Origin: a virus
IMG/VR virus record: IMGVR_UViG_3300044825_000389
Span: 1-44,837 of that record
Direction: 5' to 3' (one strand)
Length of the DNA stretch: 44,837 nt
The position numbers and the translations under genes are program-made. Positions 1 through 43,997 of the stretch are shown one piece after another. Position 1 is the stretch's first letter. Each line of letters starts with the position of its first letter. The notes beneath the pieces are model-generated. The model searched no databases, was not told where the DNA came from, and saw only the letters and a program-made list of their open reading frames with translations.

Positions 1-127
1 TCGAAGCGGCACTAGCCGATGAAGCCGCGTTCGATGCGCTGGTCGCCGCAGCTGACGCAGAGGAGGCCGCGTTGCTGGCTGAAGTCGAAGCAGAGGCAGC
101 GTCCACCAGCAGCGTCCACTTGGCGCT
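1..127. repeat. 127-base exact match to 34743-34869
   Basis: Every base of 1-127 equals 34743-34869; the first difference is base 128 (g against a at 34870). It is in the heptad-coding part of the fibre gene. Exactly the length of a common large assembly k-mer. Confidence 0.9.
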
Positions 128-745: not shown

Positions 746-774
746 TTCTCAATCCTTCCAATTGGTAATTGTAC

Positions 775-3753
775 TCACTGCTTGTACGAACCGCGTAGTT
801 GTTTTCTCTCTTGCTCGATCTCAAGGCGCTCTTGAATGGCGGCACCGTAATCACTGTTGAGCAGCAAGGTTTTCCTTGCCGCCTCCATAAATTTGTTGTC
901 AATCATCTTGATGGTTTCTTGCTGATAATATTTATCAAGCATCAAAAAATCGGGTTGTTTTGCTTGGTGTACCAGCGCTTCTTGGACATTCATGCCGCCG
1001 ATTTGAATGTCTTGCGCATAGATCCGCAGCAGTTCGTTGTATTCCTTTGTGTCAAGTTTTACGGTGGCACCGACACCCTGATTATTCGTCTGGCTGATTG
1101 CCCTTGCCGGCATGGCCAGCGGCATTCCAAGCGAGATCAACATGCGGTCGACTTCCTGCATCTTTGACTCAGACGTGCGGATGCCAGTAAAGCCCAGCCA
1201 AGGGCGAGCTGGGTCGAGCTCTGGCTCAACCTCTGCCCAACGATTCAACCGGTCTGGCAGATCACCAGACAGCCCAGGCGTGCGCGAGCGCCAGCGCAGA
1301 TAACCCTCGTACCAACCCTTAACGCCGGTCGGCATGTCCGGTGGCGCAGTAATATCCTTTTTGCTGCCGTCAATGTATCGCTCAATGCCAGCCTGGAATG
1401 AGCTCCATGCACCTATTGGCGAGCCGCCAATAACATAGCCAGACACGTTTCCAGCAATCTGATTGATCACGTCCTTCATTGATTGCTTAGGATTTGGGAT
1501 GCTGTTCCCAAGTGTGCCAACCATGCCGCCCAGCGTCTGCATAAACGGCGACTGTCCGATGTATTGGTACAGGCCAAACAGACCGCCGAGACCGATTTGG
1601 GCAATCATGTCTTGGTCGTCTTCATACCGCGCATATTCAACGAAGTCGGCAGACATGGCGAACGGCGCAGCAATCGGATCAAACCCACGCATACTGATAT
1701 ACAGCTTGCCATTCTTACCAACTGATGGATCCATGTTTGGAATATTCTCAAGATATTCCTTAAACTCGTCATCCCATTCACCAGCATTCAACACGAACGA
1801 ATAAGGCCGCCAGCCATCGCGTAGATAAACTTTGCGCAACTCTGAATTACCAGGGCCGCCACCAGTGATTCGACCGTCAACAGCCAGCGAGGTCATCGCA
1901 ATCATCGCGGTGCTGCCAAGGCCAAACTTAGCAAGCGCCAGATCACGTTGCGCACCACCAGCCTTTATGTCCTTCCACCATTGCTGCGACAACGGAGCAA
2001 ACCAACTGTGCTGCAAACCCTCAGAAATCAACCAGGTCGGCGTGCGTACAAATGGCATCGTGGTCTTAGTCAGCACGTTGACGTTTGAGACCTCTTGCAC
2101 CTTGGCGGCAAACCCGTCGAGCTCCCGCGTGTACGTCAGCATCTTGGCAAAGTCTTCTGCCGCTGCGTCCATAAAATCTGGTGGGTTGTTCATGCTGTCG
2201 ATAATGCGTTGACTGGCCATACTGCTCGCAGTAGCCTCATCAACACCATCTGTCAGCAGCTGGTTTTCATAGCGAACCCCATCACGATAGGCCTGCGCAT
2301 TGACCTCAAATTTGTAGGCAAGCGCCTTGAATGCCTCATCCTGGGATTGAATGACTCGACCAGGCACCGCCACAAACTTTGACCACAGGGTTAAGCCAGC
2401 TGCTGTCTTGCCCTCAAACCCGTATTCGGCAGCATCCAGACCAGCTGCGCCGCCGCGAGTTTCTAGCTTGGTGGCAGCCGCAGCGCCAATCCGATCATCC
2501 AGCGTCTTGCCTGTCTTGAGAGCTTCCCATCCCAAACGCATCGCGTCTTTGCTACTCTGAACGTAGCCAGCAAACCCAGCAAATGCCTCACCCATGAACA
2601 CGCGATCAGGGTTAGCGCCAGGCAACAGTTGCCGCGCTCCACCAATTGCTCCAGCTGTGAAGCGGGTAAAAGGCTGCAACAGCGCAAATGAGCTGTTGCT
2701 AATGAAGTTGACAGTTGGCGTCGCAGTCCAAGAAAGCAGCCCGTTAACCCAAGTGGACAACCACAAATCTTTGACAAATCCAACCTTGGACAGCTTGTCG
2801 ATCAGCTTTGCCTTTGCCGAGTTATCGACTAGGGACGCGATGCCTTCGGCTGCCTGCCGGATGTTTTCATCAATGTTTGGATCATCAAGCAAAGTCCTGA
2901 TTGATTTCATGTCCATAGCCGAAATGCTTGTCCGGCTTTGGTTCAATACGGCAAGCGCCTGCGCTGGCGCAACCTGAATATCCTTGGCTGCCTGGCCAAC
3001 ATGGACAGTCACCGCCCACTGCTCTAGAAACTTGCGCTGCAGCTCCTTGTCGCCCGGGGTCTTTAGCAGTGCCTCAGTAACCGTGTTGAGCTCCCTAACG
3101 TGCAAAGGAAAGGCAAGCGAAGCGCGGCGCACTTCAAAGGGCAGGTCGCCGTAGCGGTCTGCAATAGCGCGGATCTGAGCTGTGTATTCCGGCCCCATGC
3201 CTTCACGCGCAACCCGCTCTTCAATTTCAGCAAAAGTAATGCGTTGGTAATCAATGCCAGCGTTCTTCAATACCGCTTCAGTGTATTGAGCAACGCTTTG
3301 CTCGTCGTACAAATCAAGGTTGAATGGCTGCTCCGGCGGCTTGCCGGCACCTTTTGCAGCTGCGGCTTCTGCCTGCAATGTCTGCGGGGAGGGTGGCTCA
3401 ACCGCAGCCTTCGGCATCTTGACAGCAGGCTTTGGCGCGGCTGCTTTAGGGGCAGCTGGGCTTGCCGCAGCAGGAGCAGGTGCCGGGGCGGCTGCTTCGG
3501 CGGCTGCAGCTGGAGGCGGCGACTCTGGTGCAGCCTTCATGGCGTCCAGCATGTCCAGCTGTTTCTTGCCGCGTACCGCCTTGCCGCCTTTTAGGACTTC
3601 TTTTAGAACAGATCCGACCCCGGCAACCTGGACAGATTCAAACTCATCGACCGGCTCAACCAATGTCGATGGCGCTTCTTGCGGCGCCTTGTCTAGCGGA
3701 AGCGAACTGTCGACCAGCTGATCTAGGCGCTTGTTTAGGGGATCGATGGCCAT
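775..3753 (-). CDS. Large internal virion (ejection) protein, lineage A
   Basis: 992 residues. The position, just before the fibre gene and last among the internal proteins, matches T7 gp16, the biggest core protein injected into the host. Visible layout: an N-terminal acidic/polar region; an Ala/Pro/Lys-rich linker at about 75-130; a mostly helical body; hydrophobic stretches around 335-400 (LLSWTATPTVNFISNSSFALL) that could insert in the membrane; and a charged C-terminus ending RKQLRGSYKQ. I see no transglycosylase motif like that of T7 gp16, so the muralytic role is not supported. Start at 3753 is next to the stop of the 84-aa gene. It is close to the 996-aa version at 35518-38508, which differs in length only in the linker. 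The ejection role is inferred from synteny and composition. Confidence 0.75.
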   Translation of the reverse strand: MAIDPLNKRLDQLVDSSLPLDKAPQEAPSTLVEPVDEFESVQVAGVGSVLKEVLKGGKAVRGKKQLDMLDAMKAAPESPPPAAAAEAAAPAPAPAAASPAAPKAAAPKPAVKMPKAAVEPPSPQTLQAEAAAAKGAGKPPEQPFNLDLYDEQSVAQYTEAVLKNAGIDYQRITFAEIEERVAREGMGPEYTAQIRAIADRYGDLPFEVRRASLAFPLHVRELNTVTEALLKTPGDKELQRKFLEQWAVTVHVGQAAKDIQVAPAQALAVLNQSRTSISAMDMKSIRTLLDDPNIDENIRQAAEGIASLVDNSAKAKLIDKLSKVGFVKDLWLSTWVNGLLSWTATPTVNFISNSSFALLQPFTRFTAGAIGGARQLLPGANPDRVFMGEAFAGFAGYVQSSKDAMRLGWEALKTGKTLDDRIGAAAATKLETRGGAAGLDAAEYGFEGKTAAGLTLWSKFVAVPGRVIQSQDEAFKALAYKFEVNAQAYRDGVRYENQLLTDGVDEATASSMASQRIIDSMNNPPDFMDAAAEDFAKMLTYTRELDGFAAKVQEVSNVNVLTKTTMPFVRTPTWLISEGLQHSWFAPLSQQWWKDIKAGGAQRDLALAKFGLGSTAMIAMTSLAVDGRITGGGPGNSELRKVYLRDGWRPYSFVLNAGEWDDEFKEYLENIPNMDPSVGKNGKLYISMRGFDPIAAPFAMSADFVEYARYEDDQDMIAQIGLGGLFGLYQYIGQSPFMQTLGGMVGTLGNSIPNPKQSMKDVINQIAGNVSGYVIGGSPIGAWSSFQAGIERYIDGSKKDITAPPDMPTGVKGWYEGYLRWRSRTPGLSGDLPDRLNRWAEVEPELDPARPWLGFTGIRTSESKMQEVDRMLISLGMPLAMPARAISQTNNQGVGATVKLDTKEYNELLRIYAQDIQIGGMNVQEALVHQAKQPDFLMLDKYYQQETIKMIDNKFMEAARKTLLLNSDYGAAIQERLEIEQERKQLRGSYKQ

Positions 3754-4007
3754 TACGTCTGTTCCTTGTTCTGTTCAATCGGCACCTGTTCCGGCGTAGC
3801 AGTCGGCACTTGGGCTGTCGCGGTCTGGGTAACAGCCGGCTGCGGAGCTTGGTGCAGATCCGCAAAATTGAATGGCTTCAGGTTCTGCAGCGCTGCCTGG
3901 TCAAGCTCAAAGGAATCAGGAATGTCCTCCGGCTCCCGGTCGAACAGCGACTGATTTGGGAACTGCTGCAGGAAATCTTCTTCGTTCAGCGTGATTTCTT
4001 TTTTCAT
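3753..4007 (-). CDS. Small acidic protein, only in lineage A
   Basis: 84 residues starting MKKEITLNEEDFLQQF, acidic in the first half, Gln/Pro/Thr-rich in the second. The start overlaps the stop of the 606-aa gene (ATGA), with a GGAGAG ribosome site about 6 bases upstream, and its stop abuts the start of the 992-aa gene, so it is translationally coupled to two virion genes. No family recognised. Lineage B has no equivalent at this place: there the swapped 982-aa gene directly abuts the large protein and an unrelated 57-codon frame is nested in its end. The Pro/Gln tail suggests an unstructured virion-associated or chaperone-like protein, but this is a guess. Confidence 0.7.
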   Translation of the reverse strand: MKKEITLNEEDFLQQFPNQSLFDREPEDIPDSFELDQAALQNLKPFNFADLHQAPQPAVTQTATAQVPTATPEQVPIEQNKEQT

Positions 4008-5824
4008 TTGGGCTCTCCAAGCGGCTGATAGTCATTTGTCAACGTGATCTGACCTGTGCCTTGCTTGGCAATCGTAACATCCCTGTTGCCATAGACCGGT
4101 TTTCCGCTCTCATCCCTGACCTGCTTGCCCTTGACCTTTTGGATCTGCGGGTCGAAGTGGACAAAGAATCCGTTTGAGTCTTTGGCGGCACTGACTTCTT
4201 TGCGCGTATTCGCCTTGTTGCGTAGACCAACGATGACGCCATCAGTACCAGGCGGCTGGATGTCAAGCGGCCTGAAGTCATAGGTGTCGCCATCGATGAC
4301 CTTGTAGATCTTGCCGGTCTCTTCATCGATCACGCGCTCCGGCAGGATCGACTTGTGGCTAAACGCCATCGCCACGTTTTGCCCACCGTCCAGACGGCGG
4401 CGCATCTGCTTCCAGTTTTGGTTCGGGTTATTGATCGATTCTTTCAGACCGTTGTACCCAGCAGGCTGCGACACGCCCGTCGACGAGTAGGTGTAGTGAT
4501 GGTTCGGCGCAATCGGGTTGGTGTTGTTCTTGGTGTAGTCGTAGAACGTCACATCTGGGTTGCCCTTGATGATCTTCTCGTACACACGCGGGTTGATGTC
4601 AGACAACACATTCAAACGGATTGCCAGGTGGTTGCCGTTCTGTGCTGCCTTGATCTTCAATGCGGTGATCTCATCGTTGAGCTTGATCGCAAAGTTTTCA
4701 GGGTCGCGCATGAATGCCTGCGTCAGCGCAAAGCTGCGCATACGTGGGCCTTTGAGCGCATTTAAATCTGCACCACCACCATAAACATAGTACCCACCAG
4801 AGGTCTTGCCCAAGCAATCGCTAGCGCAGGATGCTGAGTTCGGGCAGGTGGTGAACTTGCCCTCTTTGAATGCAGGCGACAAAGCTAGGCCAGCGCTCTC
4901 GACGTTGCGCCCATCTGGCAGTGTGATTGGCTCGCCACCTTCCACACCTTTCTCAGTTTTGAGCAGCTTGCCATTCGTTGTCAGCAGCGGCTTGGTCTTG
5001 CCTGCTGAGTTGGTGCCGAGCCACTTGGCCAGTGCCTGGTTGGCCTGCTTGGTTCGCTCAATGCGTGCTGGCTGGTCGAGCGTAGTGAGGTTGGCGATCG
5101 CATTGTCGAAGCCACCGGACAATGTGTTGATGCTCGGCTGTACCTTGATCGGCTCGTTGAAGACCTTGATGTCCGGCGCTGCCTTCATCAAGCCGCCAGT
5201 CTTGGCCATGTAATCCTCGGCCATCTTTCCGGCAACTGGTGCGAGCTCAGTGCCGAGAGCTTTTGCGCCCTTAAGGCCAGCTTTGGCTACGTCAACATAG
5301 CCACCAGGCGCAGCAACTTCCCCAATCGATTCGTATGGATTTTGTCCGCCGGCAACGGTGCCGACGTTTTCATCCAGCCACTTCCTAATCTCTTCGGTCT
5401 TTGGCAGGATGGTCTGCTCTTCCATGCCACGCAGGAAAGCATCCAGCGCACTCTCGCCGGCACCGCGTCTGAAGATCTCTTTCACACCATAGGCCAGCGA
5501 CTCGATGTCACCAGGCAGGCCGACAAAGCCTTGTGTCATGCCTTTGACCGTCGCAGCGCCCATGTCGAGCATTGCCCCGAGCGGCTTTTCAAGACCACCG
5601 GCAGCCTCCGACTGCGCCTTGGTAACGCCACCGCGGCCAAAGCGAGGCTCTGGCACTCCAGCTGGGCCGCCAGCACCTGTCGGCACTTCAGGCTCACCGG
5701 TAACCACAACCTCCGGCAGGCGACCGGTATCAGCAGCAGCCAGCTGCATACCGTCAATAGACTCTGCTGGATACTTTGCCGCCAGCAGGTCGTTTATGTA
5801 TTCCTGTTCAATCAATGAACGCAT
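4004..5824 (-). CDS. Internal virion protein with Gp88/DUF7227-like C-terminal domain (lineage A)
   Basis: 606 residues. Residues 1-44 (MRSLIEQEY...LPEVVVTGE) are nearly identical to the start of the 982-aa protein of lineage B. A second shared block, LAPVAGKMAEDYMAKTGGLM, lies at about 194-213. After that the two proteins are unrelated. Here residues about 308-570 resemble, from memory, the stand-alone phage family labelled gene product 88 or DUF7227: a Cys cluster CPNSASCASDC (C327, C333, C337), FYDYTK at 427-432, and a late VIDGD...DFRPLD...GVIVGLRNK block. The biochemical function of that family is not known to me. The 3-Cys cluster suggests metal or Fe-S binding (inference). Its place among internal virion proteins implies it is packaged and injected. 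Confidence 0.7.
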   Translation of the reverse strand: MRSLIEQEYINDLLAAKYPAESIDGMQLAAADTGRLPEVVVTGEPEVPTGAGGPAGVPEPRFGRGGVTKAQSEAAGGLEKPLGAMLDMGAATVKGMTQGFVGLPGDIESLAYGVKEIFRRGAGESALDAFLRGMEEQTILPKTEEIRKWLDENVGTVAGGQNPYESIGEVAAPGGYVDVAKAGLKGAKALGTELAPVAGKMAEDYMAKTGGLMKAAPDIKVFNEPIKVQPSINTLSGGFDNAIANLTTLDQPARIERTKQANQALAKWLGTNSAGKTKPLLTTNGKLLKTEKGVEGGEPITLPDGRNVESAGLALSPAFKEGKFTTCPNSASCASDCLGKTSGGYYVYGGGADLNALKGPRMRSFALTQAFMRDPENFAIKLNDEITALKIKAAQNGNHLAIRLNVLSDINPRVYEKIIKGNPDVTFYDYTKNNTNPIAPNHHYTYSSTGVSQPAGYNGLKESINNPNQNWKQMRRRLDGGQNVAMAFSHKSILPERVIDEETGKIYKVIDGDTYDFRPLDIQPPGTDGVIVGLRNKANTRKEVSAAKDSNGFFVHFDPQIQKVKGKQVRDESGKPVYGNRDVTIAKQGTGQITLTNDYQPLGEPK

Positions 5825-5825
5825 G

Positions 5826-7637
5826 TCATTCTTTCAGAATATTGATCAGCTTCTCAATGCGTTTCAGTTCGTCTTTCGTAAACACCACAACCTTTATTGG
5901 CAGTATGTCTTTCTTTCTCTTTGCCTCGAGCGCCATCAAATCTGCCATGCTCGTATTTGCATTGATCGTCACGTTGACGCCAAACTCTTCTTTCGCTTTT
6001 GCCGATATTTTTTCTAGCTTTGCTTGAGCGTCTTTTTTGCGATCAATTGCAACATCATTTTCCCTAAACCCTTTTGTTACTTGGTTGGCTATTCCTTCGT
6101 AGTCAACCCCCGTCCTTTTTTCTGGCGGCAGCGCTCTTTGCTTGTCTTGCTCAATGCGCACAAGATCGTCAAACCGCTGCTTAAGTTTTTCATGCTTAAC
6201 AAACTCAGATGATTTTGGATCGAAAGCACTGGTTAGGTTGTCTGGCACCCCAGAGAATCGACGCAATGTTTGCTCTGCAGCCGCAATCTGCGGCTTTTCA
6301 GTTGAGTAAATAAATTCTTGCAGCTCGTTTAATTGCGCTGGGTTGATTTGCCCACGATTAAAATAAGGCAGCAATTGCCCAGGGTCTGTAATTCGATTGT
6401 TTTTAATTTCATCTTTTAAGCGCATTCTTACCAACGGATCGCCTTTATTGTCTTTGTCATCCTTCAAGAATTTGTCGAGCTGATCCATTGTTCCCGCCAA
6501 AGGAACCATTTGAGCCTCAAGCGCACGCCTTTGAGCCGGGCCTGCTCTGTGCCATTCCGCATATAGCTCAACCAACCTTCTGTCTTTTAATTTCTTCTCC
6601 TCTTCTTGTTTTTGCCTTCTGTTGCTTTCAACGTCAACAGACTGCTGAGTAAAAGAATTTAGAATCTTAACAAATGAATCCGGGTCATTTTGTTTGATGT
6701 ATTGGATGATGGGGCTAACTCGTCCAAGATCGCCCGCAATAATCTTGTTTCGAGTCCCCTCATAATCACCCATTAAATTCGGGTCAGAGACAATGTGAAC
6801 AAGCACAACATTTTTTCTGACTTCGCGGAGTTGGGTTTCAAACTTTTCGGAATATTCTTTTTGAAACGCAAGGCCACCATGAGTTAACGCTGTTGAGGCA
6901 ACAAAATTGCGAACTACATTTACATAATCTTCAACACTTCTTTGCTGGCCATTTTCATCAACCCAAAAACCTTGTTCTATTTTTGCTTGCAGTAAACGCA
7001 ATTGCTCGTTAAAGCCAAGGTCAAATGTTATGAGCCGCTGTTCTTTTTCGCGCTTGAGCTGAACCTCATATGCTTTATTTAGGACGGTTGATCCGTGCGT
7101 TTTAATGGTTGCCGCAACCTTAAGCGCTGCGTCTGGATCTGCCTTGGCAACGACCTTTTGAAAACTTCCGGCAAGTGCGGCGATCTTGTTTTCAACATCG
7201 CTCGATTGCAATTCGTTGTTCTCAACTTGCACCAACATTTTTCCAAGCTCATTGCTGGCGTGCAAAATAAAATGACCGGCAAGTTCTTCTGATCTTGCTT
7301 TACGAACGGCAGCGTTGAAAAAGCTAGGGAAGTCTCCTGACGCTTTCCCAATACCACCGCCCAAACCAACTACAACGCCATCACGCGCCAGTTGTAAATC
7401 AATGTCAGTTACTGGGTTATTTGCAACCCAATCTAACCCTTCTTTTGTACGCAGCTCGGCAGAGTATTTGTTGATGCTCGTGGCCATCCGGTCGAGTATC
7501 TGCGCATACACATTGCTGACATTTGCTTCAGCGCGGGCCGCAGTCATGTAATCGACCTCGGTCGGCACGACCTGCTGCATCGGCACACCGCCGGCACCGC
7601 GCAGCTGTACTTGTCCTTCGGTCAGTCGCGTTGCCAT
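5826..7637 (-). CDS. Internal virion protein, gp15-like position (lineage A)
   Basis: 603 residues, mainly charged and helical with long coiled-coil-like stretches (for example around 190-230 and 340-380). N-terminus MATRLTEGQ with a conserved GGVPM...VVP motif at about 16-25. It follows the gp14-like protein and precedes the swapped-payload gene, the place of T7 gp15. AAAGG ribosome site 6 bases before the ATG; stop one base before the next ATG. Two oddities: the gene is visibly AT-richer than its neighbours (60-base lines at 6061 and 6601 are 45% and 37% GC by count, against 65% for a line in the coat gene), and it is far more diverged from its lineage B partner than the flanking genes (28 of the first 60 residues identical). 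Confidence 0.7.
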   Translation of the reverse strand: MATRLTEGQVQLRGAGGVPMQQVVPTEVDYMTAARAEANVSNVYAQILDRMATSINKYSAELRTKEGLDWVANNPVTDIDLQLARDGVVVGLGGGIGKASGDFPSFFNAAVRKARSEELAGHFILHASNELGKMLVQVENNELQSSDVENKIAALAGSFQKVVAKADPDAALKVAATIKTHGSTVLNKAYEVQLKREKEQRLITFDLGFNEQLRLLQAKIEQGFWVDENGQQRSVEDYVNVVRNFVASTALTHGGLAFQKEYSEKFETQLREVRKNVVLVHIVSDPNLMGDYEGTRNKIIAGDLGRVSPIIQYIKQNDPDSFVKILNSFTQQSVDVESNRRQKQEEEKKLKDRRLVELYAEWHRAGPAQRRALEAQMVPLAGTMDQLDKFLKDDKDNKGDPLVRMRLKDEIKNNRITDPGQLLPYFNRGQINPAQLNELQEFIYSTEKPQIAAAEQTLRRFSGVPDNLTSAFDPKSSEFVKHEKLKQRFDDLVRIEQDKQRALPPEKRTGVDYEGIANQVTKGFRENDVAIDRKKDAQAKLEKISAKAKEEFGVNVTINANTSMADLMALEAKRKKDILPIKVVVFTKDELKRIEKLINILKE

Positions 7638-7648
7638 AATTAACCTTT

Positions 7649-8260
7649 CTATTTCTTGCCTTTGTCAGCGTAGTACCGCTCGGCAAAATTGACTGCGCCA
7701 GTTGCCAGCGTTGCGTTACTTAGCAAGCCACCTTGCTGACGCGCTGCGCTGCCAGCCTGTTCGTACTGCGCACCTTGGCGCTCTGCAGTAAACAAGTTCA
7801 GCATGTTCTGGTACTCGGTCGACTGCACCAATGCGGTCGCGTCTTCGTAGCCCATGATGCGAGCAGTCAGTGCATTCAGGTCGGTGATGCCCACGTCGAA
7901 CATGGTTGCTTTGACGTTTTCGTTCTGCACGGCCTGAACACTGCCTTCGCCCAGCACCACGCCATTCGCAGCAGCTCGAGCGCGGATCGCAGCATTGGTC
8001 GCACGCATGTTTTTCAGCAGCGTGTTGCCAGCGATCTGATAGTTCTGCGACTCCATCTGCGACTTCTTGAGCGTGCGGCCTGCCTGAATGGCGGCATACA
8101 TCTCTGCCATGTCGGCACGCACCTCGGCCACGGCGAGGTTGTCGCGTGCTTGCAACAGATAGCCGGTCTGCTGCTGAATGCCAGCAGCAATCTGCATCTG
8201 CGATTGCGCATAGCTGGTAAGAAACCCAGCGCCTGCGACAAGTTGTCCTGGATCAGCCAT
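7649..8260 (-). CDS. Internal virion protein, gp14-like position (lineage A)
   Basis: 203 residues, Ala/Gln-rich and helical, starting MADPGQLVAGAGFLTSY. Its length and its place right after tail tubular protein B match T7 gp14 (about 196 residues), the smallest ejected core protein that sits in the outer membrane. The N-terminal 20 residues are mildly hydrophobic. The alternating helices (QQQTGYLLQARDNLAVAEVR and following) are typical of this family in podoviruses. No strong Shine-Dalgarno; the start lies 2 bases after the tail B stop, so coupling is likely. The lineage B partner (43285-43995) is alike but has about 33 extra residues near its N-terminus. Confidence 0.72.
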   Translation of the reverse strand: MADPGQLVAGAGFLTSYAQSQMQIAAGIQQQTGYLLQARDNLAVAEVRADMAEMYAAIQAGRTLKKSQMESQNYQIAGNTLLKNMRATNAAIRARAAANGVVLGEGSVQAVQNENVKATMFDVGITDLNALTARIMGYEDATALVQSTEYQNMLNLFTAERQGAQYEQAGSAARQQGGLLSNATLATGAVNFAERYYADKGKK

Positions 8261-8262
8261 AG

Positions 8263-10248
8263 TCAGGTTCCCGAATAAACAGCGACTCGGTAATCAAGGC
8301 CGAGCAGATTCATCTTCAGCGGCAGACTCTGCGTCACTTCGATCGCCTGCTCGCGGCTGTAGCCGAGGATGCCGTTGACGCGCTTGATGCCGGTGAACGT
8401 CGGCACCGGGTCATCCAGCAGCGGGTTGTCCATCAGCCGGAAAGCAACTTCCTGCGCGTTGAGCAGGCAGTGCTGCGTGTCGTCCAGCACCGCGCTGATC
8501 TCGACGATGCGCTTCTTGAACGACACCCGGCTGCCGGTCTGCAGCTTGATCTCCACCGGCATCGTCTTGGCGTACACCGTCATAGGCAGGCCGACTTCGT
8601 AGCTGGTGGTCGATGCGCGGTCGAACGTCACCGAGCCGCCACCGCTTACAGTCTCGTTACTCTGCGGCACGCCATCGGTGATGACGTTCAGCGCTTTACC
8701 AATATGCGGCAGGCTGCTTGCGCTTGCTGCAGCACCGCCCGTAAATGCGCAGTCGGTATAGAGATCGTCCTTGAACTGCTCAATAAAGTACCTAGTTGTG
8801 CCATTGAACACGCGCTTGGTAACGACATAGATCTGCGTCACGTCGACACCAACATCAAGGAAATCACCATCGGTGATGTACTCGCTGGGTGATGTGATCT
8901 GCTGACTACGCATGATCGAGAACACAGCCATCGTGCCGTCGCTGGTGTTGGTCATCATCAGCAGGTCGGCTTCCTCGGTGCTGGCGGCGCGACGCAAGGC
9001 AATGCGCTGCGGGCCTTTCAACAGATGGCCTGCAAGCAGCGAGATGCGCTGCGTGATGTAGGTCAACTGCGTGTCAGAGAAGATGAACTCATTAAGCGAC
9101 TTGCCCTGGCGTTGGATGTAGATGCTGCCGGACTCAACCGACTGCACCCGCGTGCCAGGCTTGATGCCGTTGCGGCTTACCTGCTTGAAAGTGAACGTCA
9201 GCGGCGTCACCGGATCGGTGCCTTGCTGCGGAACGACGAACTCACCGCCGGTCGTGAACACTTGGAAGTCACGCGATGAGATGATGTCCGTGATGACGTT
9301 CAGGTCATTGGTGTCGAGGGTCGCCTCGACTGCGTCATCGTCCAGCGATTCGCTTGGCACGAAATCGAAGAACAGATTGATCTTTGAGCCCCAGATGGTC
9401 GATGGGCGCGACTTGCTGCCGCCAAAGTACAGCCGACCCTCGTGGAAAGTCACCGACCGCGGCCAACCCTTGCCAGAGCTCCACACATCCTCGTAGCCGG
9501 TCTCAAGCTCCCAGCTGCCATTAGCAACCGCTGACGTGTTAAAAAACGGGTACTCGGTAATGGCATCGACCGATGTCGCCGAATTGAATTTGACGATCTT
9601 TGCTCGGCCCTGCGGGCTGGCATTGATGTACTGGTTCACATGGCCGCTGTTGAACACCGAGGCCGATGCGGTAATCGTGATGTTTCCGGCCACCGCAGAC
9701 GGCGTGATCGTGCCGGACGGGTTGCTGGTCGACAGCGTGAAGGCGTACTTCGGGATGCTGTCAAACGTGATCGTGCTGGCCGTCCAGCTGGCATCGTTGG
9801 CACCGCGCACAATCTTGGTCGGCGCAAGGTCAGGATGCACCACGATCAACGTGTCAGCAGACTGCGTCCAGCACATGTCGTCGACAATGCTGCTGCCGAT
9901 GCTGGTCGTCAGGTAGTTGTTGCCGCTGCTGTTGATGTTGGCCACCACAGCGCCGTTCTTGATGACATACATGCGGTTGTGCGTGAAGCACAGCATGTAG
10001 GAGTCAGCGACCGAGAACTGAAACGGCACCAAGCGCACGCCGTTGCCGGCAGACGCGGTGCTACTGTTAGGCAGTTCAAGGATGTGTTTCAAGCCTGGCC
10101 GGCGTCGCAGTCCACCTTGCGGCTGGATCAGCACGTTGGTCGCCTTGGCCAGCGCGTTCGGATAGGACTGCAGGTCAACCCGCGCACGCAGCAGCGGGTC
10201 GAGCTCGCCCGTGCTGAAGTTGGTCGCAAAGTCGACGAAGCGCGGCAT
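8263..10248 (-). CDS. Tail tubular protein B (tail nozzle)
   Basis: 661 residues, beta-rich. The start MPRFVDFATNFSTGELDPLL, with RARVDLQSYPNAL and PQGGLRRRPG, is the signature opening of the podovirus tail nozzle family (T7 gp12 role): the distal tube through which DNA leaves, assembled under tail tubular protein A. Length fits the 600-800 residues usual for the family. Start ATG overlaps the last base of the tail A stop. The C-terminal third can be compared with the lineage B fragment at 43998-44837 and is strongly conserved. Confidence 0.88.
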   Translation of the reverse strand: MPRFVDFATNFSTGELDPLLRARVDLQSYPNALAKATNVLIQPQGGLRRRPGLKHILELPNSSTASAGNGVRLVPFQFSVADSYMLCFTHNRMYVIKNGAVVANINSSGNNYLTTSIGSSIVDDMCWTQSADTLIVVHPDLAPTKIVRGANDASWTASTITFDSIPKYAFTLSTSNPSGTITPSAVAGNITITASASVFNSGHVNQYINASPQGRAKIVKFNSATSVDAITEYPFFNTSAVANGSWELETGYEDVWSSGKGWPRSVTFHEGRLYFGGSKSRPSTIWGSKINLFFDFVPSESLDDDAVEATLDTNDLNVITDIISSRDFQVFTTGGEFVVPQQGTDPVTPLTFTFKQVSRNGIKPGTRVQSVESGSIYIQRQGKSLNEFIFSDTQLTYITQRISLLAGHLLKGPQRIALRRAASTEEADLLMMTNTSDGTMAVFSIMRSQQITSPSEYITDGDFLDVGVDVTQIYVVTKRVFNGTTRYFIEQFKDDLYTDCAFTGGAAASASSLPHIGKALNVITDGVPQSNETVSGGGSVTFDRASTTSYEVGLPMTVYAKTMPVEIKLQTGSRVSFKKRIVEISAVLDDTQHCLLNAQEVAFRLMDNPLLDDPVPTFTGIKRVNGILGYSREQAIEVTQSLPLKMNLLGLDYRVAVYSGT

Positions 10249-10862
10249 CAGTTTCTCACCGCGATGAGGGTGTAATCTTCCATTGCACGGGTCGGTTGAC
10301 CCTGCGCATCGATGTTCATTGCTGTGCGGAAGTAGCCGCCGCGGCCATTCTCAGCGGGGTCACCCACTGCCTTGCGCTCCCAGCGCAGCGACTTGTCCTG
10401 TTGTTCGGTGATCGGCTCGGCCAAATGCCAGGCCATCATGTACTTCATCAGCTGGGTGAAATACTGCGGCCAGGCAAACTCACCGACGCTGTACTGGTAG
10501 TCGATGAACACGGCCTCAATATTGGTCAGCAGCTGGTCGCCCTGGATTTCCCAGTCTTTCTGCACCGGAGCACCTGGGCTGGCGGTGTCGTACACGGCAC
10601 GCGGGCCGGCAAGGCGGTCACCCGGCAGCTGATAGGCGTATTTCCAGACCGATGTCGGCGCTGTCAGCAGGCGAGCGAGCTGCACCTTCTTGGTGTTGAA
10701 ACTCCACGGGTACATCACTAGCGTGGAGTCGCGGATGTCTGGATACAGACGGTCGCAGACCGAGCTCTCGTCGGTGCCATCATTGAACGACGTGATGGCC
10801 TTTGCGCCAATCAGGAGCAGGGCATCTGAACAAATTGTGATCCCGGTATCACCCGCTGCCAT
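10248..10862 (-). CDS. Tail tubular protein A (gatekeeper)
   Basis: 204 residues. The N-terminal part (ICSDALLLIGAKAITSF, then PDIRDSTLVMYPWSFN and KYAYQLPGD) is the pattern of the T7 gp11-type tail tubular A / gatekeeper proteins that form the ring between portal and nozzle. Usual length about 190-210. It is followed with a 1-base overlap by tail tubular protein B, the normal order. Upstream lies a stem-loop (10883-10915) separating it from the coat and decoration-protein genes. Confidence 0.87.
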   Translation of the reverse strand: MAAGDTGITICSDALLLIGAKAITSFNDGTDESSVCDRLYPDIRDSTLVMYPWSFNTKKVQLARLLTAPTSVWKYAYQLPGDRLAGPRAVYDTASPGAPVQKDWEIQGDQLLTNIEAVFIDYQYSVGEFAWPQYFTQLMKYMMAWHLAEPITEQQDKSLRWERKAVGDPAENGRGGYFRTAMNIDAQGQPTRAMEDYTLIAVRN

Positions 10863-35487: not shown

Positions 35488-35517
35488 GATTTATTTCCTT
35501 TCAGTTGATAATTGTAC

Positions 35518-38508
35518 TCACTGCTTATACGAACCGCGCAACTGTTTTCGCTCTTGCTCGATTTCCAGGCGCTCTTGAATCGCATCGCTGTACAAACTAT
35601 TTTGCAGCAGAGTTTGCCTTGCCTGCTCCATAAACTTATCGTCAAGCAACTTGATAGTTTGCTGCTGGTAATACTTATCAAGCCTTGCGAAGTCCGGCTC
35701 TTTTGCCCTAGCCACAAGCGCCTGCTGAACGGTCATCCCGTTCATTTGTACGTCCTGGGCATATATCCGCAGCAACTCGTTATATTCATTTGTGTCAAGT
35801 TTTATGGAGGCTCCCACGCCCTGGTTATTCGTTTGGCTAATTGTTCTTGGTGGCATCCCCAACGGCATACCAAGCGAGATCAACATGCGATCCACTTCCT
35901 GCATCTTTGATTCAGAAGTGCGAATGCCAGTAAACCCTAGCCAAGGCCGAGCTGGGTCGAGCTCTGGCTCAACCTCTGCCCAGCGGTTCAAGCGATCTGG
36001 CAGGCTGCCGGATAAGCCAGGCGTGCGTGAGCGCCAGCGCAGATAACCCTCATACCAGCCCTTAACGCCGGTTGGCATGTCTGGCGGCGCAGTAATGTCT
36101 TTCCTGCTGCCGTCAATGTATCGCTCAATGCCAGCCTGGAATGAGCTCCACGCACCCACTGGAGAGCCGCCAATAACATAGCCTGCCACGTTTGCGTTAA
36201 TCTGGTTAACAACATCTTTCATTACCTGCTTTGCATTTGGCACACTGTTTCCAAGCGTGCTAACCATGCCGCCAAGCGTCTGCATAAACGGCGACTGCCC
36301 GATGTATTGGTACAGACCAAACAGACCACCTAGCCCAACCTGGGCGATCATGTCTTGATCGTCTTCGTATCGAGCATATTCAACGTAATCGGCAGCCATA
36401 GCAAATGGCGCGGCAATCGGATCAAACCCGCGCATACTGATGTACAGCTTGCCATTCTTGCCAATTGATGGATCCATGTTCGGGATGCCGTCAAGATACT
36501 TCTTGAATTCATCATCCCATTCGCCCTCGTTTAACACGAACGAATAAGGCCGCCAGCCATCGCGCATATACACTTTGCGCAGCTCTGAGTTGCCAGGGCC
36601 GCCGCCAGTGATTCGACCGTCAACAGCAAGTGAAGTCATCGCCACCATTGCGGTACTGCCAAGTCCAAACTTGGCAAGCGCCAGATCACGCTGTGCGCCA
36701 CCAGCAGCCATGTCTTTACGCCACTGCGACGAAAGCGGTGCAAACCAGCTGTGCTGCAAACCCTCAGAAGTCAACCAGGTTGGCGTGCGCACAAATGGCA
36801 TCGTGGTCTTAGTGAGCACATTGACGTTTGATACCTCTTGCACCTTTGCAGCAAACCCGTCGAGATCCCGAGTAAACGTCAGCATCTTGGCAAAGTCTTC
36901 TCCCGCAGCGTCAATAAAATCTGGCGGGTTGTTCATGTTGTCAATGATGCGCTGGGTAGCCATGCTGCTTGCCGTGGCTTCATCAACCCCATCCGTCAAC
37001 AATTGATTCTCATAGCGCACCGCATCGCGGTAAGCCTGGGCATTTACCTCAAACTTGTAGGCAAGCGCTTTGAATGCTTCATCCTGGGATTGAATGACTC
37101 GACCAGGCACCGATACAAACTTTGACCACAAGCTCAAGCCAGCGGCAAGTTTGCCCTCAAACCCATATTCGGCAGCATCCAGACCAGCTGCGCCGCCGCG
37201 AGTTTCTAGCTTTGTTGCTGCCGCAGCACCCAACCGCTCGTCAAGTGTTTTGCCTGTCTTGAACGCTTCCCATCCGAGACGCATTGCGTCCTTGCTGCTC
37301 TGAACGTAGCCAGCAAACCCGGCAAATGCCTCACCCATAAATACGCGATCAGGATTAGCACCAGGCAATATCTGCCGCGCACCACCAATAGCGCCAGCCG
37401 TAAAGCGAGTAATTGGCTGCAGCAGCGCAAATGAGCTATTACTGATCATGTTTACAACCGGGGTCGCAGTCCAAGACAGTAGGCCGTTTACCCAAGTCGA
37501 TAGCCACAGGTCTTTAACAAAGCCAACCCTTGACAGCTTTTCAATCAGCTTTGCTTTGGCTGAATTGTCGATCAAAGTATTGATACCCTCGGCAGCCTGC
37601 CGAATGTTTTCATCAATACTCGGGTCATCAAGCAAAGCCTTGATTGATCCCATGTCTGTGGCTGAAATACTTGTCCGGCTTTGATTCAGTATTGCAAGCG
37701 CCTGCGCTGGTGCGACCTGAATATCTTTGGCAGCCTGGCCAACGTGTACAGTCACCGCCCACTGCTCAAGAAACTTGCGCTGAAGATCTTTGTCTGCTGG
37801 GTTTTTTAGCAGCAATTCGGTAACCGTGTTGAGCTCTCTAACATGCAGCGGAAATGCAAGAGAAGCGCGTCGCACCTCAAATGGCAGCTCGCCATAGCGG
37901 TCAGCAATAGCGCGGATCTGAGCGGTGTATTCCGGCCCCATACCTTCACGCGCAACCCTGTCCTCAATCTCTGCAAAGGTGATGCGCTGATAATCAATGT
38001 TGGCGTTTTTCAATACCGCTTCAGTGTATTGAGCAACGCTCTGATCGTCGTATAGGTCAAGGTTAAACGGCACCTCTGGTGGCTTACCAGTGCCAGCTGC
38101 AGCTGCAGCATCGGCCTCAAGTTTGGCTGGAGAAGGCGGCTCAAGCGCAGCCTTTGGCATTTTGACCGCAGGCTTTGGCGCAGCTTGTTTTGGTGCGGCA
38201 GGCTTTGGCGCAGCCGGAGCCGGAGCTGCTGGAGCTGCTGGCTCTACAACAGCTGCTGCAGGCGGCTGCTCTGGTGCTGCTTTCATGGCATCAAGCATAT
38301 CCATTTGCTTTTTGCCGCGCACAGCTTTGCCGCCTTTTATTGCTTCTTTTAAAACAGAACCAAGGCTGCCAAGGCCAGCAACCTGGACAGACTCAAACTC
38401 ACCAACCGGCTCAACCGATGTTGATGCCGCTTCTTGGGATGTCTGGTCTAATGGCCGCGAGCTGTTGACCATCTGGTCTAAGCGCTTGCTTAACGGGTCA
38501 ATGGCCAT
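35518..38508 (-). CDS. Large internal virion (ejection) protein, lineage B
   Basis: 996 residues; the partner of the 992-residue protein at 775-3753. Most of the body is the same apart from scattered conservative changes, with more changes in the Ala/Pro/Lys linker (about 75-130, 4 residues longer) and near the C-terminus before the identical RKQLRGSYKQ end. The same hydrophobic region around 340-400 is kept. Start overlaps the 982-residue gene stop (TAATG). Confidence 0.75.
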   Translation of the reverse strand: MAIDPLSKRLDQMVNSSRPLDQTSQEAASTSVEPVGEFESVQVAGLGSLGSVLKEAIKGGKAVRGKKQMDMLDAMKAAPEQPPAAAVVEPAAPAAPAPAAPKPAAPKQAAPKPAVKMPKAALEPPSPAKLEADAAAAAGTGKPPEVPFNLDLYDDQSVAQYTEAVLKNANIDYQRITFAEIEDRVAREGMGPEYTAQIRAIADRYGELPFEVRRASLAFPLHVRELNTVTELLLKNPADKDLQRKFLEQWAVTVHVGQAAKDIQVAPAQALAILNQSRTSISATDMGSIKALLDDPSIDENIRQAAEGINTLIDNSAKAKLIEKLSRVGFVKDLWLSTWVNGLLSWTATPVVNMISNSSFALLQPITRFTAGAIGGARQILPGANPDRVFMGEAFAGFAGYVQSSKDAMRLGWEAFKTGKTLDERLGAAAATKLETRGGAAGLDAAEYGFEGKLAAGLSLWSKFVSVPGRVIQSQDEAFKALAYKFEVNAQAYRDAVRYENQLLTDGVDEATASSMATQRIIDNMNNPPDFIDAAGEDFAKMLTFTRDLDGFAAKVQEVSNVNVLTKTTMPFVRTPTWLTSEGLQHSWFAPLSSQWRKDMAAGGAQRDLALAKFGLGSTAMVAMTSLAVDGRITGGGPGNSELRKVYMRDGWRPYSFVLNEGEWDDEFKKYLDGIPNMDPSIGKNGKLYISMRGFDPIAAPFAMAADYVEYARYEDDQDMIAQVGLGGLFGLYQYIGQSPFMQTLGGMVSTLGNSVPNAKQVMKDVVNQINANVAGYVIGGSPVGAWSSFQAGIERYIDGSRKDITAPPDMPTGVKGWYEGYLRWRSRTPGLSGSLPDRLNRWAEVEPELDPARPWLGFTGIRTSESKMQEVDRMLISLGMPLGMPPRTISQTNNQGVGASIKLDTNEYNELLRIYAQDVQMNGMTVQQALVARAKEPDFARLDKYYQQQTIKLLDDKFMEQARQTLLQNSLYSDAIQERLEIEQERKQLRGSYKQ

Positions 38509-41456
38509 TATTCAGCTCCTGTCTTTGGAGCTGGACGGCTCCTGGTTACTTCTTCACCTGAGAGGATTCCCGCTTGCCGACCGCGCCGGTCAGATACAGT
38601 TCCTGAAACCCCTTGCCGGATCTTTCCGCTTCGATTTGGTTGCGAAGCATTTGCACCGCCGGGTGATCCTTGCCCAGGCGCGTTTCGCGCTCCTTCAGCA
38701 TTTCTTCCAAGGTAAGCATCGTAGTCACTCCTGAAAAATACGTTGGTGTCGTACCACACCAACCTGGCGTCAGACACGTTGCCATCACCAATTATATCAG
38801 TCACAACTTGATCGAAAAGCCGTTGTTTTTCTGACATTATTTGCGCACGGTTTGCCGCGTTGTAGGCATCATCAAATTCGGGGATGTACTGGAATCGGAC
38901 ACCATTCAACCCGGCAATATCTGCGCCGCCAGCTCGCGCTTGTACGTTGATGCGATCGCTAAATCGCATGTCGGTGACATAGGTGAAACCGTCCACTCCA
39001 TACTCTCGGAGCTTTGCGGTTACCTTCTCCATCTGCTCCGGCGTTACCTTTTGCTTAAAGTAAATCTCGACGCCCGGTCTAGCATTGGGAGCGGTACCGT
39101 TTTGCAAGACCTTGGAGATAAACACCGCGTCTTGGTCATATGCTTTGCCTTGCTCAACTAGTCTGCGCTCTAGCGAAGCCGGATTAAAGTTCTGTCGCGT
39201 GACAAACTCAGCGTTAAGAGCACGCTCTGTTTGCGCCATGAATGAACCATAGGTATTCGACAGGTTGTAAGTCACGACGCTAGGGTCGGCGCGAACAACA
39301 TCATCAAACTCTGCCGCAAGCTCTGCTTGTGCATAGTTACTCATCGGGCGATTTGGTCGCTCACCAGATACGCCAAGTGTGTATCGATCAACATCGGATT
39401 GCATAGCAGACAGCTGCTGTCGCTTTGCTTGCTTGTCGTTTTCAAACACTGCTTTTGCTTCCTGTACGCGGTCAGCGTACTGCTGATCGGTTTCTGTTTT
39501 GCGTTGTACTGGCGGCTTAAATCCAGTGTTTATGTCACGGCGCAAATCTTTGATGATTTGTGGATCAGCAGCGCCAGCAAGCGACATCTCAAAATCAAGA
39601 GAGCCACCTTCGCCGGCTTTGCTCGTCCAGCCGTTGTTTGTCCATTTCTCTTTTTCAATGAACCAGGCAACAGCTTGCAAGTCATCCGGGCCTAGATCAC
39701 CAATCTGTGGCGCGACCCCTTTAATAATTCCGCTATTATTGATCTCTTCAGCTGCTTCGCGGAAAACATCCTGACCAAATCCAAACTCACTGCCAACTTT
39801 CGGATCGTACAAACTAGATCCAACCAAGTGTTTGCCTGCCACACCCTTTTCTGCTGGCGGCGGAATACGCGGCAGATCTGCCAAACGGCGAAGCATTCGC
39901 GCTGCCCACACATCAATCGTTGCCTCATTAGTTAGGCCAATTAGATTGCCTGTAAAGTTTGGCGTCTTTGGCGAGTCACCAGCTTTGACAGCGCGGAACA
40001 TATCGAGCAACGCGCCCATAGAAGAAGGGCTGTTTGCGTTGAATAGCTGACCGCTCGCTTTTGTGATGAGTGGGAATTCTCCTTTTTTGAAAAGCTGAGT
40101 CAGTGTTTTTGCGTCTACTGGCAAACCAGACTTCAACCTGTCTTCGTAAGCACGAAGCTCGGCGTCATACTCACCACGCGAGAACCTTCTTAGAATCTCA
40201 ATAGCATTATCAAAGTTTTGCTCGACGCCAGTTTGCGCCGATGTAGTTCCAAGCACGTCAGCAAACGCATCGCCAATCCCTCCAAACTCAGCACGCAATC
40301 TGTCACGCATTGAGCGATACCAGCTTGCCTGCGAAAGAATGTCAATAGCGGCCTGATCACCAGCTTGGGCTCGGTTAACAATGTCCTGCACTTCATCAAA
40401 AAGCCTTGAGGCAAGAGTAGATTGCCAAAGATCTTTTGGCACGCCTTCAGGCGGCGTATGGAAATCGTAAGGAATCTTTGCCGCCTCGACCTCGGCGATC
40501 GTGCCGCCAGACTTTGATTCCTTGAAATCAATCTTGGATGCCTCGATAGGAACCCACCCATCTGCCTCTGGGTAGTTGGCGTGCATGTCCTCGACGGCTT
40601 TGGTGGCAGCCTTCCTTAATGCGGGCTTACGTCCAGCCGCGTTGGTTACTACGGTGCGCTCAGATCTAGTAAGCGCAGGAACATTGCCAGCTGCCGAGCC
40701 TGGCGGCGCGACATCCATAAGCCCGCCAGTTTTCCGCATGTAGCCTTCAACCATCTCGCCGGCAACCGGTGCCAGCGCCTCACCCAAAGCCTTGCCACCT
40801 TTTGCGGCAAGCGCAACGCCAGGCACAACATCCAATCCCTGCAGCACGCCAGTTCCGTAGCTCAATGCGGCCTTGCCATACTCGCCCGCCTGCGCAGCCT
40901 CTCTTGCCTCACCAGCAGAAATACCTGCTTCCTGCGCGGCAAGTGGGATGACAAATGGAGTAACATCAACCAAGCCAATACCAAGCGGTGCGCCAGAGCT
41001 CTCGCCGCCAAACATGGTTTGCGCCAGCCTGCGTGCGCGGACATTGTCCATGCCGGTGTTGTCAATCAGCATCTGCTGCATACCAGCAGCCAGCTTCTCA
41101 CGCAGGGTCATATCTTTTGGAATAACAGAGCCCACAACGCCAGCCTTCTGATCTTCTGCAATCCTGCGCATGATCATTTCTGATTGCGTTGCCAGCGGCA
41201 TATTGCGCATCATCTCCGCAGCCTGTTCAGGCGTGGTCGGCGCTTTAGGCAGACCAGCAGGCGCATCTGTGCGCGTCTTGCTCGGGCCAGCGGCCAGCTG
41301 AACGCCATCAAGCGACGGCTCTGACTCACCAGTAACCACAACCTCCGGCAGACGGCCGGTATCGGCAGCAGCCAGCTGCATACCGTCAAGAGACTCTGCT
41401 GGATACTTTGCTGCCAACAGGTCGTCGAGATATTCCTGTTCAATCAGTGAGCGCAT
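38508..41456 (-). CDS. Internal virion protein with alternative payload (lineage B)
   Basis: 982 residues. Residues 1-44 match the 606-residue lineage A protein, as does the hinge LAPVAGEMVEGYMRKTGGLM at 228-247. Between them is a B-specific segment (SLDGVQLAAGPSKTRTDAPA..., with a second copy of the MQLAA-like motif). From about 250 on the protein is unrelated to A: a helical block (SWYRSMRDRLRAEFGGIGDA), VDVWAARMLRRLADL-type helices and a late mixed domain (YTLGVSGERPNRPMSNYAQA, REYGVDGFTYVTDMRF). The last ~70 residues are Gly/Arg/Ser-rich and overlap another gene. Function unknown; resembles domains of large phage polyvalent/injected proteins. Confidence 0.65.
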   Translation of the reverse strand: MRSLIEQEYLDDLLAAKYPAESLDGMQLAAADTGRLPEVVVTGESEPSLDGVQLAAGPSKTRTDAPAGLPKAPTTPEQAAEMMRNMPLATQSEMIMRRIAEDQKAGVVGSVIPKDMTLREKLAAGMQQMLIDNTGMDNVRARRLAQTMFGGESSGAPLGIGLVDVTPFVIPLAAQEAGISAGEAREAAQAGEYGKAALSYGTGVLQGLDVVPGVALAAKGGKALGEALAPVAGEMVEGYMRKTGGLMDVAPPGSAAGNVPALTRSERTVVTNAAGRKPALRKAATKAVEDMHANYPEADGWVPIEASKIDFKESKSGGTIAEVEAAKIPYDFHTPPEGVPKDLWQSTLASRLFDEVQDIVNRAQAGDQAAIDILSQASWYRSMRDRLRAEFGGIGDAFADVLGTTSAQTGVEQNFDNAIEILRRFSRGEYDAELRAYEDRLKSGLPVDAKTLTQLFKKGEFPLITKASGQLFNANSPSSMGALLDMFRAVKAGDSPKTPNFTGNLIGLTNEATIDVWAARMLRRLADLPRIPPPAEKGVAGKHLVGSSLYDPKVGSEFGFGQDVFREAAEEINNSGIIKGVAPQIGDLGPDDLQAVAWFIEKEKWTNNGWTSKAGEGGSLDFEMSLAGAADPQIIKDLRRDINTGFKPPVQRKTETDQQYADRVQEAKAVFENDKQAKRQQLSAMQSDVDRYTLGVSGERPNRPMSNYAQAELAAEFDDVVRADPSVVTYNLSNTYGSFMAQTERALNAEFVTRQNFNPASLERRLVEQGKAYDQDAVFISKVLQNGTAPNARPGVEIYFKQKVTPEQMEKVTAKLREYGVDGFTYVTDMRFSDRINVQARAGGADIAGLNGVRFQYIPEFDDAYNAANRAQIMSEKQRLFDQVVTDIIGDGNVSDARLVWYDTNVFFRSDYDAYLGRNAEGARNAPGQGSPGGANASQPNRSGKIRQGVSGTVSDRRGRQAGILSGEEVTRSRPAPKTGAE
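38546..38719 (-). CDS. 57-residue gene nested in the end of the payload gene
   Basis: ATG at 38717-38719 preceded by AGGAG with 8 bases spacing, an ideal ribosome site. MLTLEEMLKERETRLGKDHP then AVQMLRNQIEAERSGKGFQE: a well-formed charged helical protein, while the 982-residue frame over the same bases gives Gly/Arg/Ser-rich low complexity. So here the nested frame is probably the older, constrained one. It ends 37 bases before the large internal protein start, the same relative place as the 84-residue gene of lineage A. No family recognised. Confidence 0.7.
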   Translation of the reverse strand: MLTLEEMLKERETRLGKDHPAVQMLRNQIEAERSGKGFQELYLTGAVGKRESSQVKK

Positions 41457-43995: not shown

Positions 43996-43997
43996 TT

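What the first reader, a model, noticed from the sequence alone, without database searches (positions are those of the whole stretch)
4004..5824. Payload swap in an internal virion protein between lineages
The 606- and 982-residue proteins occupy the same slot, share residues 1-44 (with LPEVVVTG) and a later hinge (LAPVAG.M.E.YM.KTGGLM), but the rest is unrelated. A conserved virion tag with exchangeable C-terminal domains is what one would expect of a delivery system that injects variable effector or anti-defence domains into the host. This modular slot could be an undescribed phage effector-delivery locus.
Basis: partly seen in the sequence, partly recalled or inferred. Interest (0 to 1): 0.8.

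Follow-up and report, generated by a model that had tools for sequence, protein, structure and literature searches.

The report
Swappable effector slot in podovirus virions
In a large group of uncultured short-tailed phages, one gene among the DNA-ejection proteins keeps its beginning and its last few codons but exchanges its whole middle for unrelated enzyme-like domains, which looks like a cargo slot for proteins injected into the bacterial host with the phage DNA.

Summary
The 606- and 982-aa proteins fill the same slot between the gp15-like and gp16-like ejection proteins in two non-identical copies of the block on one IMG/VR contig. Behind the same N-terminal tag/trunk I found at least 13 payload classes, about ten of them unrelated by the tools used. 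They include GP88, DUF7178 variants, Zeta_toxin, two ART-PolyVal forms and a sub-threshold RelA/SpoT-like domain. Some phages carry only the trunk ("empty"), among them probably the isolate MEP301. Exchange is recent and local: phages with identical or near-identical neighbours carry different payloads, and breakpoints fall at the tag or hinge and at the last ~12 codons. The payload domains also occur concatenated in giant "polyvalent" proteins at the equivalent place in other phages. Best reading: a single-cargo, polymorphic version of polyvalent proteins, packaged and injected to act on the host. Packaging, injection and activity are inferred, not shown. The concept has precedents (polyvalent proteins, MuF polymorphic toxins); this tag/trunk and locus matched none of the families or papers searched. 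Bonus: the shared C-terminal peptide of six classes is explained by an RNA hairpin over the gp16-like start.

The parts
4004..5824 (-). slot protein of the left block, 606 aa: trunk + GP88 payload (class P1)
   Evidence: ORF; Pfam GP88 E 8e-16 and phrog_1617 E 3e-30
5174..5824 (-). N-terminal tag and trunk (aa 1-217), shared with other slot proteins
   Evidence: blastp to the 982-aa protein and to slot proteins of L004-L022
5168..5281 (-). hinge (aa 182-219, LAPVAGKMAEDYMAKTGGLM), one of the preferred exchange boundaries
   Evidence: tblastn 63% to the 982-aa protein; breakpoints of related pairs
4211..4975 (-). GP88 domain (aa 284-538), with an invariant C-x5-C-x3-C motif in 14 relatives
   Evidence: alignment A5
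38508..41456 (-). slot protein of the right block, 982 aa: trunk + payload class P2
   Evidence: ORF; P2 family alignment A7, 9 loci
40704..41456 (-). tag and trunk (aa 1-251) of the 982-aa protein
   Evidence: 95.5% DNA identity with L009 up to aa 250, then none until the last 12 codons
39894..40331 (-). DUF7178-like domain of P2 (aa 376-521)
   Evidence: hhalign to the DUF7178 family alignment A6: probability 96.3, E 1.7e-9, conserved Lys and Asp aligned
38497..38552 (-). RNA hairpin at the end of the slot gene covering ribosome-binding site and start codon of the gp16-like gene
   Evidence: MFE -18.7 kcal/mol, z -3.48; 85.5% of cells paired in 23 sequences, covariation above all 500 shuffles
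3753..4007 (-). 84-aa gene that follows the GP88 payload in several lineages
775..3753 (-). gp16-like internal virion protein (992 aa), downstream neighbour of the slot
   Evidence: phrog_6651 'internal virion protein' E 1e-14
35518..38508 (-). gp16-like internal virion protein of the right block (996 aa)
   Evidence: phrog_6651 E 2e-16
5826..7637 (-). gp15-like protein (603 aa), upstream neighbour of the slot
   Evidence: position and size; no convincing family hit; blastp to its counterpart
41458..43275 (-). gp15-like protein of the right block (605 aa)
   Evidence: 40% to the left copy
7649..8260 (-). gp14-like internal virion protein (203 aa)
   Evidence: weak phrog_418 E 0.06; position
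43285..43995 (-). gp14-like protein of the right block
   Evidence: 69% to the left copy
8263..10248 (-). tail nozzle / tail tubular B protein, used as backbone marker
   Evidence: phrog_376 E 4e-120
43998..44732 (-). 3' part of the second nozzle gene, cut by the contig end
   Evidence: 86% to the left copy
10248..10862 (-). tail tubular A-like protein (204 aa)
   Evidence: phrog_394 E 3e-35

Best explanation
The gene is a polymorphic cargo slot in the DNA-ejection module of a group of short-tailed phages. A conserved N-terminal tag and trunk (sometimes the whole protein, ~150-170 aa) does the virion job. Fused behind it, and exchanged as a cassette by homologous recombination, is one enzyme-like payload drawn from the same pool that other phages string together in giant polyvalent proteins. 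Proposed sequence: the protein is made with the other ejection proteins, packaged through its tag/trunk, ejected with gp14/15/16-like proteins, and the payload then acts in the newly infected cell on host functions or defences. Shown here: the slot, the conserved ends, at least 13 payload classes, trunk-only forms, and recent local exchange. Inferred: packaging, injection and the action of the payloads.
For: (1) Fixed place: between gp15-like and gp16-like in every locus where the block is complete. (2) Payload diversity: 13 classes plus trunk-only forms; Zeta_toxin E 3e-13, ART-PolyVal E 4e-20 and 1e-8, DUF7178 E 6e-26 and 2e-8, GP88 E 8e-16, RelA_SpoT E 0.002 (below Pfam's cut-off). (3) Exchange: on a nozzle-protein tree of 64 loci, payload class needs at least 33 changes (13 is the minimum possible, shuffled mean 46); two loci with identical nozzle carry P2 and P12. 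(4) Local: L085 vs L091 have nozzle 99%, gp16-like 98%, trunk 85%, payload unrelated; W982 vs L009 are 95.5% identical in DNA up to aa 250 and 96% again from the last 12 codons, with no match between. The same payload sits on different trunks (L010 vs W982; GP88 on at least four trunks). (5) Dispensable payload: trunk-only genes of 145-171 aa and 161-aa gp25 at the same place in isolate MEP301. (6) Link to injected proteins: P5, the P10 domain (phrog_3170) and, weakly, ART co-occur in ~3,000-aa proteins lying after the nozzle and before the fibre in other phages, one with LPD22 (E 6e-14). The P5 model matches viral proteins named polyvalent / ART-PolyVal-like at probability 1.0.
Against: No virion proteomics or infection data. 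The trunk matched no known packaging domain. Most payloads have no known activity; GP88 and P2, the two in this window, are uncharacterised. No MuF, portal or metallopeptidase domain was found in the slot proteins. A metabolic or structural role of the payloads is not excluded.
Confidence: 0.72

Rival explanations
1. Ordinary mosaicism of a structural ejection protein: the variable part is a structural or envelope-penetrating domain that evolves fast, as peptidoglycan-hydrolase domains move between gp15 and gp16 homologues.
For: Ejection proteins are known to be mosaic and to swap the peptidoglycan-hydrolase domain (PMC8954989). The neighbouring gp15-like gene also diverges (down to 23-24% identity).
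Against: No payload matched a peptidoglycan hydrolase convincingly in Pfam, PHROGs or NCBIfam; the only 'endolysin' label, phrog_873 on P8 (E 3e-4), covers 46 residues of the ART domain. Identified payloads are ART, zeta-toxin kinase, RelA/SpoT-like and polyvalent-protein domains. Trunk-only forms show that the payload is not needed for structure.
Confidence: 0.13
2. The payloads are not injected: they act late in the producing cell (lysis timing, superinfection exclusion) and the trunk merely anchors a moron-type insertion in a late gene.
For: The gene is in the late operon and would be made in the producing cell; no packaging data exist.
Against: The payload is fused in frame behind a conserved trunk in an ejection block rather than being a separate gene, and the same domains are fused into giant proteins at the equivalent virion locus.
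Confidence: 0.1
3. Assembly artefact: chimeric metagenome contigs create false fusions.
For: The window itself carries two versions of the late block and may be chimeric.
Against: Uninterrupted reading frames cross the junctions. The same trunk-payload junction recurs in separate samples (606-aa form in the window, L004 and L005; 599-aa form in several contigs).
Confidence: 0.02

Closest known systems
Phage polyvalent proteins (Iyer et al. 2017, PMC5512222)
   Same: Same kinds of payload (ART-PolyVal, RelA/SpoT), same late virion gene neighbourhood, same proposed injection with the DNA.
   Different: Polyvalent proteins carry 2-15 domains in one large polypeptide. Here one payload at a time sits behind a constant tag/trunk and is exchanged as a cassette; trunk-only forms exist.
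MuF polymorphic toxins of temperate phages (PMC12226406)
   Same: Conserved N-terminal virion-associated part plus variable C-terminal toxin-like domain, including RelA-like nucleotide pyrophosphokinases.
   Different: No MuF domain here; the tag lies in the podoviral ejection-protein block; no immunity gene seen apart from a small 84-aa gene next to GP88 of unknown role.
T7-type internal virion (ejection) proteins gp14/gp15/gp16 (PMC8954989)
   Same: Gene order tail tube A/B, gp14-, gp15-, gp16-like; gp16-like matches phrog_6651.
   Different: An additional gene, the slot, lies between gp15- and gp16-like, with variable cargo.
RIX-domain T6SS effectors (PMC10435454)
   Same: Short N-terminal delivery domain in front of diverse effectors.
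   Different: Bacterial secretion system, unrelated; an analogy only.

Membership tests
Polyvalent proteins | Two or more disparate domains in one large polypeptide | tested here: not met
   Slot proteins are 145-982 aa with one recognised payload; giant relatives in other phages do meet it
Polyvalent proteins | Domains from the polyvalent pool (ART-PolyVal, LPD, RelA/SpoT ...) | tested here: met
   ART-PolyVal E 4e-20 / 1e-8; RelA_SpoT only sub-threshold; P5 fold in named polyvalent proteins
Polyvalent proteins | Encoded beside late virion genes | tested here: met
   Between gp15-like and gp16-like genes
Polyvalent proteins | Delivered with the DNA into the host | not testable with these tools
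   Needs virion proteomics and infection assays
MuF polymorphic toxins | N-terminal MuF domain | tested here: not met
   No MuF hit in any slot protein scanned with Pfam at E <= 1
MuF polymorphic toxins | Variable C-terminal toxin-like domain behind a constant N-terminal part | tested here: met
   At least 13 payload classes behind the trunk
HhH-GPD DNA glycosylases (for the P5/P2 payload domain) | Catalytic Lys and Asp 18 residues apart after a helix-hairpin-helix | tested here: inconclusive
   Invariant K160 and D178 at helix starts in A6; the 18-residue spacing in known enzymes is recalled from memory
HhH-GPD DNA glycosylases (for the P5/P2 payload domain) | Recognisable sequence or fold similarity to known members | tested here: inconclusive
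   Foldseek: an 8-oxoguanine glycosylase (3knt) is the only listed hit with probability above 0.13 (0.57, TMt 0.50), but E 2.4; PF00730 not found in the window; hhalign to E. coli Nth negative
T7-type internal virion proteins | Presence in the virion core | not testable with these tools
   gp16-like neighbour matches phrog_6651; the slot protein itself has no such hit

The most novel reading that the evidence does not exclude
A dedicated polymorphic effector-delivery locus of short-tailed phages. The N-terminal tag (with a motif of type S[LM][DE]G[MV]QLA[AG] that also occurs near the N-terminus of the gp16-like ejection protein) is a portable packaging-and-injection signal, and phages trade single anti-host or anti-defence enzymes through it by recombination at two fixed anchors.
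Probability: 0.5. Interest if true: 0.8.

Novelty: new variant of a known kind. Interest (0 to 1): 0.64.

Why it matters
If the slot protein is injected, the locus is a natural catalogue of proteins that phages find worth delivering at the first moment of infection, sorted one per phage and easy to mine by position. It would give candidate counter-defence enzymes and a candidate packaging signal, and it suggests how polyvalent proteins could be assembled from, or split into, single cargos. Virion proteomics of one isolate would make the idea directly testable.

Tried and rejected
The 982-aa protein and the P5 slot protein have no match in 50,697 phage records. GP88 fold: AF2 model of low confidence (pLDDT 67) and no Foldseek match in PDB (best E 0.36), so a radical-SAM/Fe-S idea from its three invariant cysteines stays untested. 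Sequence search of PDB with GP88 and P5 profiles: nothing convincing. NCBIfam and PADLOC: nothing convincing. P3 and P11 as DUF7178 relatives: not supported by hhalign; P12 is one by Pfam (DUF7178 E 6e-26). C-terminal peptide VT[RG]GRxAPxxGAE as a protein signal: rejected in favour of an RNA hairpin. Shared QLA motif of slot and gp16-like N-termini: enriched (40/61 and 38/41 distinct N-termini) but only 12 of 46 pairs are individually significant at 0.05, so kept as a lead. Literature searches found no description of this slot.

Full report
Observation. The window is a 44,837-bp IMG/VR virus record. On its minus strand lie two non-identical copies of a podoviral late block: tail nozzle, gp14-like, gp15-like, a 'slot' gene, and a gp16-like internal virion protein (phrog_6651). 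The slot gene encodes 606 aa at 4004-5824 and 982 aa at 38508-41456. They share residues 1-71 (69%) and the hinge (182-219, 63%), weakly the whole first 217/251 residues, and nothing after that.

Collection of slots. I collected relatives by the gp16-like neighbour, by the DNA pattern of the tag, by the nozzle (80 loci), by payload P5 and by GP88. Wherever the block is complete the slot is between gp15-like and gp16-like. The encoded proteins range from 145 to 982 aa. Clustering the parts behind the trunk, with the larger clusters split by the reference payload matched and by inspection, gives classes P1-P13. P1 is GP88 (E 8e-16). P2 is the 982-aa type. P5 (E 2e-8) and P12 (E 6e-26) hit DUF7178. 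P6 is Zeta_toxin (E 3e-13). P7 and P8 are ART-PolyVal (E 4e-20, 1e-8). P10 hits phrog_3170 (E 9e-17). P13, a partial gene, is RelA/SpoT-like below Pfam's cut-off (E 0.002). P3, P4, P9 and P11 have no convincing family. Because P2, P5 and P12 are related and P7 and P8 are both ART, these are about ten unrelated families. Six loci in the tree set have trunk-only genes of 145-171 aa, and the isolate MEP301 has a 161-aa gene, gp25, at the same place; its sequence similarity to the trunks is weak (best E 0.003).

Exchange. On a tree of 64 nozzle proteins the payload class needs at least 33 changes; the least possible is 13 and shuffled labels need 46 on average. So payloads are somewhat inherited but turn over quickly. 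L089 and L091 have identical nozzle proteins and carry P2 and P12. L085 and L091 match in nozzle (99%), gp14-like (99%), gp15-like (88%), trunk (85%) and gp16-like (98%), but not in payload. DNA breakpoints are sharp. W982 against L009 is 95.5% identical up to aa 250, shows nothing until the last 12 codons, then is 96% identical. L182 against L024 breaks at aa 48 and resumes in the last 12 codons. The reciprocal case, same payload on different trunks, is also seen: L010 and W982 share P2 on different trunks, and GP88 sits on at least four trunks. L115 and L193, phages of a second subgroup with a near-identical tag, carry P5 and GP88 respectively. This pattern fits cassette exchange by homologous recombination at the tag or hinge and at the 3' end; the mechanism is inferred.

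Link to polyvalent proteins. P5 relatives occur in proteins of up to 4,081 aa in other phages. In several these lie after the nozzle and gp15-sized genes and before the tail fibre. One (L131) carries LPD22, DUF7178, phrog_3170 and a weak ART-PolyVal hit. GP88 occurs with a sub-threshold ParB_N hit in L196 and inside a 2,089-aa protein in L199. The AF2 model of P5 (pLDDT 88.5) matches, in the library of viral structures, proteins named large-polyvalent-protein or ART-PolyVal-like at probability 1.0. So what other phages string together in one polypeptide is here offered one domain at a time. Iyer et al. proposed that polyvalent proteins are virion-borne and injected (PMC5512222); I extend that proposal to the slot by inference.

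What the payloads might do. ART, zeta-type kinase and RelA/SpoT domains are classical effector activities. For P5 and P2, the family has an invariant Lys and Asp 18 residues apart at helix starts. That spacing is what I recall for HhH-GPD DNA glycosylases. The best-scoring listed PDB match by probability is an 8-oxoguanine glycosylase (3knt, probability 0.57, TMt 0.50), but its E-value is 2.4, and neither Pfam HhH-GPD nor E. coli Nth is reached by sequence. I regard a glycosylase-like activity as possible, not established. GP88 has three invariant cysteines; its model was too poor to place the fold.

The conserved end. Six payload classes (P2, P3, P4, P6, P11, P12) end in a peptide like VTxGRxAPxxGAE. 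At the DNA level this is a hairpin GCTCC-N7-GGAGC whose 3' arm is the likely ribosome-binding site of the gp16-like gene, with GCCGT facing its start codon ATGGC. In the window it folds at -18.7 kcal/mol, z -3.48; across 23 sequences 85.5% of cells pair, with covariation above all 500 shuffles, a control that does not correct for relatedness. The likely role is translational coupling of the gp16-like gene to the slot gene, and the segment also marks the 3' exchange boundary.

Verdict. The delivery interpretation is the best available one but rests on position, domain content and fusions, not on virion data. The principle is known; the single-cargo podoviral slot with its tag, trunk-only forms and exchange anchors was not found in the literature or family libraries I could search.

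Noticed in passing
window 38497-38552 (-) and the same place in L006, L010, L024, L028, L033, L041 and others: Hairpin at the end of the slot gene hides ribosome-binding site and start codon of the gp16-like gene; it accounts for a C-terminal peptide shared by six payload classes.
   Followed up: yes
N-termini of slot proteins (aa ~25-76) and of gp16-like proteins (aa ~33-59): Both carry a similar short motif, EPSLDGMQLAAG in the slot and TPSMDGVQLAGL in gp16-like; possible common virion-sorting or processing signal.
   Followed up: partly
window 3753-4007 (-); L004, L005, L187, L188: A 70-84 aa acidic protein follows the GP88 payload even on a different trunk, as if it travelled with GP88.
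   Followed up: no
window 1-3755 vs 34743-38510, and 8243-9102 vs 43978-44837: The contig carries two versions (80-83% DNA identity in these stretches) of the late block and is longer than one genome unit: a chimeric assembly of two strains or a tandem.
   Followed up: partly
trunks of L033-L042, L061, L067-L099 (aa ~45-200): The trunk itself comes in several apparently unrelated middle types (for example FVPFLGT..., GLPGDLESL..., LADLLPFVGSAK...), so it is modular as well.
   Followed up: no
L126-L181: P5/DUF7178 is about 45-60% conserved inside giant proteins of very different phages, yet not found in 50,697 phage records searched by tblastn: a common domain of uncultured phages.
   Followed up: partly
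window 23313-23993 (+): ORF that reads like a serine recombinase (resolvase type), hinting at a temperate life style; no family search was made.
   Followed up: no
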